From Candidatus Polarisedimenticolia bacterium (GTDB taxonomy: Bacteria; Acidobacteriota; Polarisedimenticolia; Gp22-AA2; AA152): a DNA stretch of 64,000 bases. Below are positions 59,174 to 63,488 of this stretch, piece after piece; positions within the stretch are counted from its first letter, which is position 1; every line of letters starts with the position of its first letter. A program made the position numbers and the translations under genes. A model generated the notes under the pieces. That model worked only from the letters and a program-made list of their open reading frames with translations. It ran no database searches and was not told the DNA's origin. The DNA lies in NCBI GenBank assembly GCA_036004685.1, contig DASYRE010000031.1, forward strand, positions 62,001-126,000, read 5' to 3'.

Positions 59174-60208
59174 ATGCGTCCCCAACCCCGGCTCCTGGCC
59201 GTTGCGCTCCCTCTCCTCGTTCTCCCGGCCGCGATGAGTCTCTCGCCGGCGTTCGCCGGGCGCCGCGTGGCCACGTTCAGCATCGTGGGATACGACCCGG
59301 TGACGGGCGATCTCGGCGTCGCGGTGGAGTCGCGGTTCTTCGCCGTGGGATCGGTCGTCCCTTGGGCGAAGGCCGGAGTCGGCGCCGTCGCGACGCAATC
59401 CTTCGCCAACACGACCTTCGGGCCGAAGGGGCTGCAGCTCCTCGAGAAGGGCCTCGCCCCCGCCGAAGTCCTCGATCAGCTCGTGAAGGGCGATGCGCAA
59501 GCCGAGCAGCGCCAGGCCGGCATCGTGGACGCGAAGGGCAGGACCGCCACCTGGACCGGAGCGAAATGCAACGCCTGGGCCGGCGGGAAGATGGGTAAGA
59601 ACTACGCGGCCCAGGGCAACATCCTGGCCGGAAAGGAAGTCGTGGGGGCGATGGCCGCGAGCTTCGAGGCTTCCACGGCGCTGCCGCTCGCCGACCGGCT
59701 GGTGAAGGCGCTCGCCGCCGGCCAGGCCGCGGGCGGCGATGCGCGCGGGCAGCAATCGGCGGCCCTTCTGGTCGTTCGCGACAGGGGTGGCTACGCCGGC
59801 TACAACGATCGCTACATCGACCTGCGCGTCGACGACAGCCCGCGCCCCATCGAGGAGCTGCAGCGCCTCCTCGAGCTGCACCACACGACCAACGCTTACA
59901 GCGACGCGCGTTTCTGGGTGGACAAGGGGGAGCGGGAGCGCGCCGTCGCGATCATGGAGGAGGCGACGCGGCGGCGAGCCTCCGCGCCGGGCCTGAACGA
60001 GGCGGACCGGGGAAGCGCCTATTACGATCTGGCCTGCTTCTATTCGCTCGCGGCGCTGAAGGAGCCGGCCTTCGCGAACCTGGAGAAGGCGTTCCGGCTG
60101 AATCCGACGCTGGTTCCGTATTCCCTGAACGACACCGACCTCGACCCGATTCGGGACGATCCGCGCTACAAGGCCTGGGTCAAGGATGCCGGCGCTCCGA
60201 AGAAATGA
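59174..60208 (+). CDS. Secreted DUF1028 (Ntn-hydrolase-like) protein with TPR tail
   Basis: 344 residues; GGGAG lies 5 nt before ATG 59174, and a TATAAT at 59129-59134 may be its -10. A signal peptide (LLAVALPLLVLPAAMSLSPA) leads into DUF1028: VATFSIVGYDPVTGDLGVAV and ATQSFANTTFGPKGLQLLEK, a fold related to Ntn hydrolases. The C-terminal 90 residues (YYDLACFYSLAALKEPAF, LDPIRDDPRYKAW) are a TPR-type tail. Enzymatic activity is unproved. It is the last gene before the atypical restriction-modification pair. Confidence 0.9.
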   Translation: MRPQPRLLAVALPLLVLPAAMSLSPAFAGRRVATFSIVGYDPVTGDLGVAVESRFFAVGSVVPWAKAGVGAVATQSFANTTFGPKGLQLLEKGLAPAEVLDQLVKGDAQAEQRQAGIVDAKGRTATWTGAKCNAWAGGKMGKNYAAQGNILAGKEVVGAMAASFEASTALPLADRLVKALAAGQAAGGDARGQQSAALLVVRDRGGYAGYNDRYIDLRVDDSPRPIEELQRLLELHHTTNAYSDARFWVDKGERERAVAIMEEATRRRASAPGLNEADRGSAYYDLACFYSLAALKEPAFANLEKAFRLNPTLVPYSLNDTDLDPIRDDPRYKAWVKDAGAPKK

Positions 60209-60273
60209 TCGCCCGCGCCCTCGGGCCAGGCTCGGATCGAGGCTCATCGTCGATATCTGATAGAGTTCCGCCA

Positions 60274-61137
60274 ATGAGCATGGAGACTATCCGAAATATA
60301 GCTCGCTCCTCCAGGGCGGCAATCCGCCAACCAGCAGCGCGGGCGGCGATTCGCCAGGTGCCGGCTCTGCGTCCCCCGCTCAAGTGGGCCGGTGGCAAGC
60401 GCTGGCAGGTGCCGCACCTGAAACCCTTGTGGCGAAAGCACGCGAATCGGCGCCTGGTGGAGCCCTTCTGCGGAGGGCTCGCAGTGACGCTCGGTCTCGT
60501 TCCCGAGCGAGCGCTTCTGAACGACATTAATCAGCACGTTATCAACTTCTACCGCTGGCTAGGGCGCGGCCTCACGATCGATCTACAAATGAAAAACTCT
60601 GAAAAGCTTTATTACCGCCATCGCAACCGCTTCAACCAGTTCCTCGCTGAAGGCCTCGAGGAAAGCGCCGAGGCAGCAGCGCTTTTTTACTTTTTGAACC
60701 GCACCGGCTACAACGGCCTCTGCCGATTCAACAGAAAGGGCAGCTTCAACGTGCCCTTTGGCCGTTACGTCCGCATCAATTACACCACCGACTTCTCGGC
60801 GTACGTCGAAGTCTTCGCGAACTGGGAATTCACGAGCTCCGACTTTGGGGAGATCCAGCTAGAAACTACTGACTTCATCTATGCCGATCCGCCCTATGAC
60901 GTGGAGTTTACTCAATACGCTCAGAACGGATTCTCCTGGGACGATCAGGTTAGGACGGCGGAGCAATTGGCTCGCCATCGAGGTCCCGTCGTGCTGTCAA
61001 ACCAGGCCACGCCGAGGATCGTCAAGCTGTATGAGAAACTCGGCTATCGATTGAGCATTCTCGAGGCGCCGCGCATGATCAGCTGCACGGGAGACCGCAG
61101 CCGCGCCCGAGAGGTTCTAGCGGTCCGAAACCTCTGA
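60274..61137 (+). CDS. D12-class adenine-specific DNA methyltransferase (Dam-like)
   Basis: 287 residues from ATG 60274; ATG 60280 is also in frame. An alpha-class N6-adenine methyltransferase: motif X LKWAGGKRW, motif I LVEPFCGGLAVTL, and catalytic motif IV DPPYD. FLNRTGYNGLCRFNRKG is typical of the D12/Dam family, several of which recognise GATC; the target here cannot be told. The base composition is visibly more AT-rich than its neighbours, with codons such as TTT, ACT and AAA more frequent. It forms a restriction-modification pair with the nuclease gene 4 bp downstream. Confidence 0.93.
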   Translation: MSMETIRNIARSSRAAIRQPAARAAIRQVPALRPPLKWAGGKRWQVPHLKPLWRKHANRRLVEPFCGGLAVTLGLVPERALLNDINQHVINFYRWLGRGLTIDLQMKNSEKLYYRHRNRFNQFLAEGLEESAEAAALFYFLNRTGYNGLCRFNRKGSFNVPFGRYVRINYTTDFSAYVEVFANWEFTSSDFGEIQLETTDFIYADPPYDVEFTQYAQNGFSWDDQVRTAEQLARHRGPVVLSNQATPRIVKLYEKLGYRLSILEAPRMISCTGDRSRAREVLAVRNL

Positions 61138-61141
61138 GTCC

Positions 61142-61558
61142 ATGTCGACACGAGACACGGGAACGGGGACGGTTCTCGAGCAGATGATCCTGCCCGCCTT
61201 GCAGCGCGGCGGCTATGCCCATCGAAAACAAGTCATCATCGGCACCCGGATTGGCGGACGCCGGCATTGTATTGATGCGATTGCGGAAAAGGATGACCGA
61301 CAGTGGCTCGTCTCTCTCAAATGGCAGCAAGTTTCCGGCACCGCCGAGCAAAAGGTCCCCTTTGAAGTCATTTGCCTGGCCGATTCAGTTCTCTCGGGGG
61401 GCTATGAGTCCGCGTATCTCGTTCTCGGCGGAGAAGGCTGGACGCTTCGGAATTTTTACACCAGCGGCGGCCTGCAGAAATACTTGAGCGGCACGGCGTC
61501 GGTGAACATCGTGACCCTGGAGTCATTCATCGCGAAAGCGAACCAGGGACGTCTGTGA
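61142..61558 (+). CDS. PD-(D/E)xK-like nuclease, partner of the methyltransferase
   Basis: 138 residues; ATG 61142 is 4 bp after the methyltransferase stop. The central stretch RRHCIDAIAEKDDRQWLVSL then KWQQVSGTAEQKVPFEVI has a D-x(n)-x-x-K arrangement, a conserved mark of a small PD-(D/E)xK family associated with methyltransferases. It has a more AT-rich composition than the host, like the methyltransferase. It is probably the cognate type II endonuclease. The cleavage site is unknown. Confidence 0.75.
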   Translation: MSTRDTGTGTVLEQMILPALQRGGYAHRKQVIIGTRIGGRRHCIDAIAEKDDRQWLVSLKWQQVSGTAEQKVPFEVICLADSVLSGGYESAYLVLGGEGWTLRNFYTSGGLQKYLSGTASVNIVTLESFIAKANQGRL

Positions 61559-61600
61559 TAGAAGAGCGCTCCTGACCAGCGTCCTTCCGGAGGAATCAGC

Positions 61601-61948
61601 ATGCGGATCGACTGGCGGTACCACCGGAACGGTTGAACGAGCTGCGGGAGGGCGCAGGAGTTTCTTGCGCGGCAACGCATCGACAGCGTCGAAGTAGTGA
61701 ATGCCAAGAAGGAGACGATCGGGGAGAAGGAAGCGCTGGCCCTGGCCCGGCAGGCGGACGAGATCTACGCCATGCGCGGCAAGAAGGTCGTGCGCGTCGA
61801 TATGAAGCGCCAGCCTCCCGACGCGGCGACCCTGAGGAGCCTGATCATCGGCCCGAGCGGCAACCTCCGCGCCCCGGCGCTCCGCGTCGGCCGGACGCTC
61901 CTCGTCGGTTTCGACGACGCCACCTACCGGAAGGTGCTGTCGGGATAG
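61601..61948 (+). CDS. ArsC-like selenoprotein candidate (UxxC), TGA read as selenocysteine
   Basis: 115 residues if TGA 61634-61636 is read through. ATG 61601 has GGAGGA 6 nt upstream. The protein begins MRIDWRYHRNG-U-TSCGRA. The single in-frame TGA sits exactly where the first Cys of a CxxC redox motif is expected, and the frame continues to TAG 61946-61948. The C-terminal part (LIIGPSGNLRAPALRVGRTL, LVGFDDATYRKVL) is the ArsC/Spx thioredoxin-like fold, a family with known selenoprotein members. A SECIS-like hairpin follows at 61652-61670. A gene call that stops at TGA would start at GTG 61697 and lose the active site. It is probably a thiol/selenol oxidoreductase. Confidence 0.8.
61652..61670 (+). 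promoter_or_regulatory. Candidate bacterial SECIS element
   Basis: An 8-bp hairpin GCGCAGGA-GTT-TCTTGCGC (one G-T pair) starts 15 nt after TGA. The apical loop has G and T as its first two bases, at 24 nt from TGA, within the usual 16-37 nt for SelB-bound loops in bacteria. Confidence 0.7.
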
Positions 61949-61950
61949 CG

Positions 61951-63258
61951 TCAGCCCCGCTTCTCGGGGGGAACATAGCGCCGCTCGGTGGCTCCCATGT
62001 AGATCTGCCGGGGCCGGCCGATCCGGAACGCGGGATCATGCCTCATCTCCAGCCAGTGCGCGATCCAGCCGGCAAGCCGCCCCATCGCGAACATCACGGT
62101 GAACATGTTCACGGGGATGCCAATCGCCTGGTAGATCACGCCGGAGTAGAAGTCGACGTTCGGGTAGAGCTTCCGGCTGACGAAGTACTCGTCCTTCAAG
62201 GCCACCTCCTCCAGCTTCATGGCGATTTCGAGAAGCTGGCCGGAGCCCCCCACCCGTCCGATGACGTCGTCGCAAGTCTTCTTGAGGATCGCCGCCCGCG
62301 GGTCGTAGCTCTTGTAGACGCGATGCCCGAAGCCCATCAGCCGTGTCGTGTCGTTCTTGTCCTTGGCGCGCTGGAGGAATTTCTCCGCGCTTCCTTCCTT
62401 GGCCGCGATCTGCTCGAGCATCTCGATCACCTTCTGGTTCGCCCCGCCGTGCAGCGGCCCCCACAGGGCGCTGATCCCGGCCGAGATGCTGGCGAAGAGG
62501 TTCGCCCGCGAGCTGCCGACCAGCCGGACGGTGCTCGTGGAGCAGTTCTGCTCGTGGTCGGCGTGGAGGATCAGCAGGAGATCCACCGCTTTGGCCACCA
62601 CCGGGTCGACCGCGAAGTCCTCGCAGGGATTGCCGAACATCATCCGCAGGAAGTTGGAGCAGTAGTCCAGCTTGTTGCGCGGGTAAAGGGCGGGCTGCCC
62701 CAGGGAGTGCTTGTAGGAAAGCGCCGCGATCGTCGGCATCTTCGCCAAGAGTCGGACGATCGACTCGTGGACGTTCTGGTCGGTCTCCGGATACTGATAG
62801 AACGTGGCGAGCGCCCCGACGGCGGCGGCGCAGACCGGCATCGGATGGGCGTCCTTCGGCAGCGACGCGAAGAAGCGCTCGAAATCCTCGTGAAGCATCG
62901 TGTGGTAGGTGATCTCGCGGATGAAGTGCTGCAGCTCGGCCGGCGTCGGCAGCTCTCCATGAATGAGCAGCCAGGCGACCTCGAGGTAGTTGCTCTTCTC
63001 CGAAAGCTCCTCGATCGGGTATCCCCGGTAACGGAGAATCCCTTTCTCCCCGTCGATGAACGTGATGCTGCTCGCGCAAGCACCCGTGTTGCCGAATCCC
63101 GGATCCATCGTGATCAGCCCCAGCGTGTCCCGGAGCTTGGTGATGTCGGCGGCCACCTCGCCTTCGGTCCCCGTGATGACCGGTAGCTTCGCGGTCTTTC
63201 CCCGGCGGGAGAGCTCCAGAGTCTCTCCCGCGCTCTTCTCAGGCTGCTGCGTTCCCAT
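61951..63258 (-). CDS. gltA: Citrate synthase, type I-like
   Basis: 435 residues; AGGAG lies 7 nt before ATG 63258. It condenses oxaloacetate with acetyl-CoA in the TCA cycle. Catalytic and substrate motifs: SSITFIDGEKGILRYRGYP, HADHEQNCSTSTVRLVGSS with the first active-site His, GPLHGGANQKVIEML, MGFGHRVYKSYDPRA with the second His, and LYPNVDFYSGVIYQAIGIP with Asp. It converges on the selenoprotein gene with 2 bp between stops and is divergent from the efflux gene. Confidence 0.98.
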   Translation of the reverse strand: MGTQQPEKSAGETLELSRRGKTAKLPVITGTEGEVAADITKLRDTLGLITMDPGFGNTGACASSITFIDGEKGILRYRGYPIEELSEKSNYLEVAWLLIHGELPTPAELQHFIREITYHTMLHEDFERFFASLPKDAHPMPVCAAAVGALATFYQYPETDQNVHESIVRLLAKMPTIAALSYKHSLGQPALYPRNKLDYCSNFLRMMFGNPCEDFAVDPVVAKAVDLLLILHADHEQNCSTSTVRLVGSSRANLFASISAGISALWGPLHGGANQKVIEMLEQIAAKEGSAEKFLQRAKDKNDTTRLMGFGHRVYKSYDPRAAILKKTCDDVIGRVGGSGQLLEIAMKLEEVALKDEYFVSRKLYPNVDFYSGVIYQAIGIPVNMFTVMFAMGRLAGWIAHWLEMRHDPAFRIGRPRQIYMGATERRYVPPEKRG

Positions 63259-63323
63259 GACGTGGCTCCTCTCCGCCGCGTTCCGGGTGCGATTCGCACC
63301 CGATTGTCGGCAGGCGCGATCGA

Positions 63324-63353
63324 ATTCTACTCCCGCCGCTTGGCTCTTCTCAA
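63324..63353 (-). promoter_or_regulatory. Candidate sigma-70 promoter for gltA
   Basis: Minus strand: TTGAGA (63353-63348), 18-bp spacer, TAGAAT (63329-63324), about 65 nt before the start codon. Confidence 0.45.
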
Positions 63354-63356
63354 ATG

Positions 63357-63386
63357 TTGCCCGGGATTGCGGCGGCGCATTAGAAT
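63357..63386 (+). promoter_or_regulatory. Candidate sigma-70 promoter for the efflux gene
   Basis: TTGCCC, 18-bp spacer, TAGAAT, about 100 nt before ATG 63489; back-to-back with the gltA promoter. Confidence 0.4.
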
Positions 63387-63488
63387 GTCCCGCTCTTTCA
63401 AAGACGATACGAGCGGGCCTGAGAAAAGGACCCGCCACTCACGGTCGCGAGACCGGCGCATGAGCCGCCACCCGCGGATAGGATCGGG

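What the first reader, a model, noticed from the sequence alone, without database searches (positions are those of the whole stretch)
61601..61948. ArsC-like selenoprotein with TGA at the first position of a CxxC motif
Seen: a frame from ATG 61601 (good ribosome site) to 61948 is broken by one TGA at 61634. The residues after it (TSCGRA) form the rest of a CxxC motif. A strong hairpin with a G-T-containing apical loop lies 15-34 nt after TGA. Known: bacterial selenoproteins need a SelB-bound SECIS just 3' of UGA, and ArsC/Spx-type members with Sec in UxxC exist. Inferred: this is a functional selenoprotein that standard gene callers truncate to an 83-codon fragment lacking the active site.
Basis: partly seen in the sequence, partly recalled or inferred. 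Interest (0 to 1): 0.85.

Follow-up and report, generated by a model that had tools for sequence, protein, structure and literature searches.

The report
Selenocysteine-containing Spx/ArsC-like redox protein gene
This is a real bacterial gene that reads an in-frame TGA 'stop' as selenocysteine in a small redox protein; the protein belongs to a selenoprotein family that is already catalogued, so it is well supported but ordinary.

Summary
ATG 61601 to TAG 61951 is one frame broken only by TGA at 61634. Read as Sec, the protein is a full-length hit to NCBIfam NF041106, 'ArsC family (seleno)protein' (139 bits, cut-off 85). The same genome holds tRNA-Sec (UCA), selA, selB and selD, and selD has an in-frame TGA at its own Sec site. 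In a 396-genome phylum sample, 36 genomes carry this gene with one TGA and all 36 have selA (63% of the sample has it). In the 37 TGA copies read out, TGA is always the first position of the UxxC/S site. The hairpin 16-34 nt after the TGA fits the published bacterial SECIS model; in 25 distinct sequences its five core pairs form in 125 of 125 cases, with compensatory changes at four. A cyanobacterial homologue has TGC here and has lost three of those pairs. The closest solved relatives are Spx proteins; membership of catalytic ArsC is not supported. The family is known (NCBIfam; PMC13188914), so this is a new member of a known kind. What the protein reduces or senses is unknown. A restriction-modification-like gene pair directly upstream is a separate observation.

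The parts
61589..61593 (+). Shine-Dalgarno-like GGAGG, 7 nt before the ATG
   Evidence: sequence
61601..61951 (+). Sec-containing Spx/ArsC-like gene: 116 codons (115 residues by the tools' count to 61945 plus the last Gly) and TAG
   Evidence: translation with TGA=Sec; NF041106 139 bits; AlphaFold2 model mean pLDDT 94.6
61634..61636 (+). in-frame TGA, residue 12, selenocysteine codon, first position of UxxC
   Evidence: aligns with the first Cys of the Spx CxxC
61643..61645 (+). TGC, Cys15, second residue of UxxC (presumed resolving thiol)
   Evidence: replaced by Ser in one relative, L040
61652..61670 (+). bacterial SECIS hairpin, 8-bp stem with GUU loop at 61660-61662, 23 nt between UGA and loop
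   Evidence: fold -10.5 kcal/mol; covariation; model constraints quoted from PMC13188914
61697..61948 (+). 83-codon open fragment (GTG start) that remains if TGA is read as a stop; lacks the redox site

Best explanation
A functional bacterial selenoprotein gene. The ribosome reaches UGA at codon 12; SelB carrying Sec-tRNA-Sec binds the hairpin just downstream and selenocysteine is inserted instead of termination (inferred from the parts, not observed). The product is a roughly 115-residue thioredoxin-fold protein of the Spx/ArsC type whose U-T-S-C site most likely works as a selenenylsulfide/thiol redox centre: Sec attacks the oxidised substrate and Cys15 resolves it. It most likely acts as a small disulfide/peroxide-type oxidoreductase or a redox sensor rather than as a classical arsenate reductase; the substrate is not known. 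Shown here: frame, family, machinery, conserved TGA, covarying SECIS. Inferred: actual Sec insertion, the redox chemistry and the role.
For: NF041106 match over its full length, 139.3 bits against a cut-off of 85. Own genome: tRNA-Sec 75.1 bits, anticodon UCA; selB over cut-off including its C-terminal part; selA 564 bits; selD 369 bits with its own in-frame TGA in GGUAAK. 36 of 396 phylum genomes carry the gene with exactly one TGA; all 36 have selA, against 251 of 396 overall (p about 3e-8 ignoring relatedness). TGA in the same motif position in 37 of 37 copies read, the window's included. Stem: five core pairs 125/125, compensatory changes at four pairs, slid controls 22-50%. The Cys homologue L022 has TGC and three broken core pairs. 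pN/pS 0.37-0.62 downstream of the TGA among five relatives. AlphaFold2 pLDDT 94.6; best PDB folds are Spx. TGA is an ordinary stop elsewhere in the window (19 of 32 long ORFs).
Against: No protein or 75Se evidence. Substrate and partner unknown. SECIS stems in some close relatives are not the minimum-energy fold (e.g. L030, L032, L038), and the divergent members L057-L059 have the hairpin in another register. One TGA carrier, L026, has no selA found in its assembly (the assembly may be incomplete). The pN/pS ratio is only moderately below 1.
Confidence: 0.96

Rival explanations
1. A broken (pseudo)gene or a sequencing error: a Cys codon TGC/TGT turned into TGA, leaving an untranslated remnant.
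For: A single TGA in an otherwise open frame looks like this at first sight, and a Cys form exists in a relative (L022).
Against: The same TGA occurs in 37 of 37 TGA copies read from genomes in several families and phyla together with a compensated stem; codons after the TGA are under purifying selection; the genome has the full Sec machinery.
Confidence: 0.02
2. Translation starts downstream (GTG 61697) and gives an 83-residue protein without the redox site; the TGA is outside the gene.
For: The 83-codon ORF is open.
Against: The family profile aligns from residue 3 to 109, across the TGA; residues before the TGA (Y7, R9, G11) are conserved, Y7 and R9 invariantly in 20 sequences; the Cys form L022 has an uninterrupted frame through this part; a good ribosome site precedes ATG 61601.
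Confidence: 0.01
3. UGA is read as another amino acid (Trp, Cys) or by unspecific read-through, not as Sec.
For: Read-through of UGA by near-cognate tRNAs is known in bacteria (general knowledge).
Against: TGA is a normal stop for most long ORFs of the window; the site is a redox Cys in homologues; a covarying SECIS-like hairpin follows at the right distance; Sec machinery present.
Confidence: 0.01

Closest known systems
NCBIfam NF041106 ArsC_rel_Se_1, 'ArsC family (seleno)protein'; 'Arsenate reductase-like protein, UxxC' in Table 1 of PMC13188914
   Same: Full-length sequence match above the curated cut-off, UxxC with Sec first, single Sec.
   Different: Nothing essential; a new sequence of this family.
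'Arsenate reductase 2', UxxC, cd03032 in the Global Ocean Sampling selenoproteome (PMC2398784)
   Same: ArsC-type protein with a UxxC site, with Sec and Cys forms.
   Different: Marine metagenome fragments; whether they are the same subfamily as NF041106 was not tested here.
Spx / MgsR (TIGR01617; PDB 1z3e, 6ghb, 7f75)
   Same: Best solved relatives by sequence and by fold; Sec12-x-x-Cys15 aligns with the CxxC redox switch of Spx.
   Different: 22.4 bits against a cut-off of 75, overall TM about 0.55, so a separate subfamily; binding to RNA polymerase not shown.
Glutaredoxin-coupled arsenate reductase ArsC (TIGR00014 / PF03960)
   Same: Distant common fold; weak PF03960 match.
   Different: PF03960 17 bits against 24; TIGR00014 not among matches up to E = 1.

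Membership tests
NF041106 ArsC family (seleno)protein | whole-protein score above the curated cut-off of 85 bits | tested here: met
   139.3 bits, profile 1-107 of 107
NF041106 ArsC family (seleno)protein | Sec (TGA) or Cys at the first position of the UxxC site | tested here: met
   TGA at 61634; TGA in all 37 TGA copies read, TGC in L022
bacterial SECIS (bSECIS model in PMC13188914) | apical loop 3-9 nt, stem 4-16 bp | tested here: met
   loop GUU, 8 bp
bacterial SECIS (bSECIS model in PMC13188914) | G in the first two loop positions | tested here: met
   first loop base is G61660
bacterial SECIS (bSECIS model in PMC13188914) | 16-37 nt between UGA and apical loop; energy at or below -7.5 kcal/mol | tested here: met
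   23 nt; -10.5 kcal/mol for the 19-nt hairpin
bacterial SECIS (bSECIS model in PMC13188914) | binding by SelB | not testable with these tools
   selB gene present, including C-terminal part
Sec-decoding genome | selA, selB, selD and tRNA-Sec present | tested here: met
Spx/MgsR regulators (TIGR01617) | score above the cut-off | tested here: not met
   22.4 bits against 75.05
Spx/MgsR regulators (TIGR01617) | binds RNA polymerase alpha C-terminal domain | not testable with these tools
   none
arsenate reductase ArsC (PF03960, TIGR00014) | score above the cut-off | tested here: not met
   PF03960 17 against 24; TIGR00014 not listed at E up to 1
arsenate reductase ArsC (PF03960, TIGR00014) | arsenate reductase activity | not testable with these tools
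   none

The most novel reading that the evidence does not exclude
The selenoprotein is a working part of a defence cassette: a D12-type adenine methyltransferase and a small PD-(D/E)XK nuclease sit directly upstream in the same direction here and in two other genomes (methyltransferase only in a fourth), so the Sec protein might couple the cell's redox state to restriction-modification. Most copies of the Sec gene have no such neighbours, and both types of the methyltransferase-nuclease pair occur without the Sec gene, so coincidence or a shared insertion site is more likely.
Probability: 0.04. Interest if true: 0.55.

Novelty: new member of a known kind. Interest (0 to 1): 0.17.

Why it matters
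It confirms by several independent lines a selenoprotein that simple gene calling would cut to an inactive 83-residue fragment, and it gives strong covariation evidence for the SECIS of family NF041106. The family has no known function, so the useful open question is what an Spx-like protein gains from selenium. It does not change any general picture.

Tried and rejected
Pseudogene/sequencing error, downstream start and unspecific read-through were considered and rejected. Classical arsenate reductase as the family was rejected on scores. Rfam found nothing over threshold in the window. No homologue on PLSDB plasmids. Conserved operon partners: none across the family; neighbours differ from clade to clade, except the D12 methyltransferase upstream in four genomes of the class; both types of that methyltransferase-nuclease pair also occur without the Sec gene. 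A tree did not place those four Sec proteins in one clade. A first pairing count without a loop gap mixed two registers and was replaced (then). The whole genome was not available as a file, so the complete selenoproteome was not listed.

Full report
Observation. ATG 61601 is preceded by GGAGG at 61589-61593, the frame runs to TAG 61949-61951, and TGA at 61634 is the only stop inside it. With TGA as Sec the protein begins MRIDWRYHRNGUTSCGRAQEFLA. If TGA is taken as a stop, an ORF finder reports an 83-codon piece from GTG 61697.

Family. The read-through protein matches NCBIfam NF041106, ArsC_rel_Se_1, 'ArsC family (seleno)protein', over the whole profile with 139.3 bits (cut-off 85). Matches to Spx (TIGR01617, 22.4 of 75 bits) and ArsC (PF03960, 17 of 24 bits) are below their cut-offs. 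The nearest solved structures by sequence are Spx proteins, with Sec12 and Cys15 aligned to the CxxC of Spx. An AlphaFold2 model from an alignment of 20 sequences has mean pLDDT 94.6 and pTM 0.87; its best Foldseek matches in the PDB are Spx structures (best E 3.5e-5, TM about 0.55), followed by ArsC-like proteins and glutaredoxins.

Machinery. The genome that holds the window has tRNA-Sec with anticodon UCA (75.1 bits), selA (564 bits), selB (302 bits for the first part, 327 with the C-terminal stretch in the same frame) and selD (369 bits). selD carries an in-frame TGA in ...SSGGUAAKLSPEDL..., which fits the UxxK motif listed for selenophosphate synthetase in Table 1 of PMC13188914. A second, unrelated gene in the same genome thus also appears to use TGA for Sec.

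Conservation of the TGA. In 396 genomes of the phylum, 36 have a close relative (53 bits or more) with exactly one TGA inside. All 36 have selA, while 251 of the 396 do (hypergeometric 2.7e-8, which ignores relatedness). In the 37 TGA copies read out, from this set and from named Acidobacteria and Gemmatimonadetes assemblies, the TGA is always at the first position of the motif. The cyanobacterial relative L022 has TGC there; its genome also has selA, so the Cys form is not simply due to loss of the pathway.

SECIS. The hairpin 61652-61670 has eight pairs and loop GUU, 23 nt after the UGA, -10.5 kcal/mol. It meets the constraints of the bacterial SECIS model as given in PMC13188914 (loop 3-9 nt, stem 4-16 bp, G in the first two loop positions, spacing 16-37 nt, energy at most -7.5). 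By itself it would be weak evidence, since 2.5% of TGAs in the window have such a stem nearby. Across 25 distinct relatives, however, the five core pairs form in 125 of 125 cases; four of the five show changes on both sides (for example C-G to U-A, A-U to C-G or G-C, G-U to C-G), and slid controls pair in 22-50% (the alignment has one hand-placed gap in the loop). In the Cys homologue three of the five core pairs are broken. Three divergent members (L057-L059) have a hairpin in another register.

Selection. Downstream of the TGA, pN/pS is 0.44-0.60 between the window copy and four relatives and 0.37-0.62 among those relatives, consistent with a protein under constraint.

Mechanism. Most likely SelB with Sec-tRNA-Sec binds the hairpin and Sec is inserted at codon 12, and Sec12 and Cys15 form a selenenylsulfide/thiol couple in a thioredoxin-fold protein. 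Insertion and chemistry are inferred. Cys15 is replaced by Ser in one relative (L040), so the resolving thiol may come from elsewhere in some members. The substrate, or a possible Spx-like regulatory role, is unknown.

Surroundings. Downstream, convergent, is a citrate-synthase-like ORF (61951-63438, minus strand; named from its sequence, not from a profile search). Upstream, in the same direction, are a D12-class adenine methyltransferase (60205-61137) and a PD-(D/E)XK_11 protein (61142-61558). The same order recurs at the Sec gene in L060 and L062, and with the methyltransferase only in L061. The nuclease also occurs with D12 methyltransferases in five genomes of another family of the same order without the Sec gene, and most Sec genes have other neighbours. 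The two genes are probably an independent restriction-modification-like unit that happens to lie here.

What is known. The family is listed in NCBIfam and in Table 1 of PMC13188914 as 'Arsenate reductase-like protein, NF041106, UxxC'; ArsC-like selenoproteins have been reported since 2006-2008 (PMC1794560, PMC2398784). The finding is correct and well supported, and it is a new member of a known kind.

Noticed in passing
window 60205-61558; L060 3824-5236; L062 5311-6639; L061 6504-7436: D12 adenine methyltransferase plus PD-(D/E)XK_11 nuclease directly upstream of the Sec gene in three genomes, methyltransferase only in a fourth. The window pair is of a different type (methyltransferase 68-71% identical to pairs in another family of the order, only 32-35% to the other Sec-linked ones), as if one unit had replaced another at the same site.
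   Followed up: partly
L088-L096: A second group of ArsC/Spx-like proteins with TGA in a UT[ST]C motif followed by SECIS-like hairpins, in nine genomes of the phylum; below the NF041106 cut-off. In L088 the gene lies about 5 kb from selA on the same contig.
   Followed up: partly
L040 (G215): A member of the family with U-T-S-S: Sec kept, the second Cys replaced by Ser.
   Followed up: no
L018 1501-2427: selD of the same genome appears to be itself a selenoprotein gene, with TGA in GGUAAK.
   Followed up: yes
L057-L059: Divergent members whose SECIS-like hairpin sits a few nucleotides nearer to the UGA in two of the three, with a CGUGA loop.
   Followed up: no
L022 5001-5339: Cys form in a cyanobacterial assembly whose genome still has selA.
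   Followed up: partly
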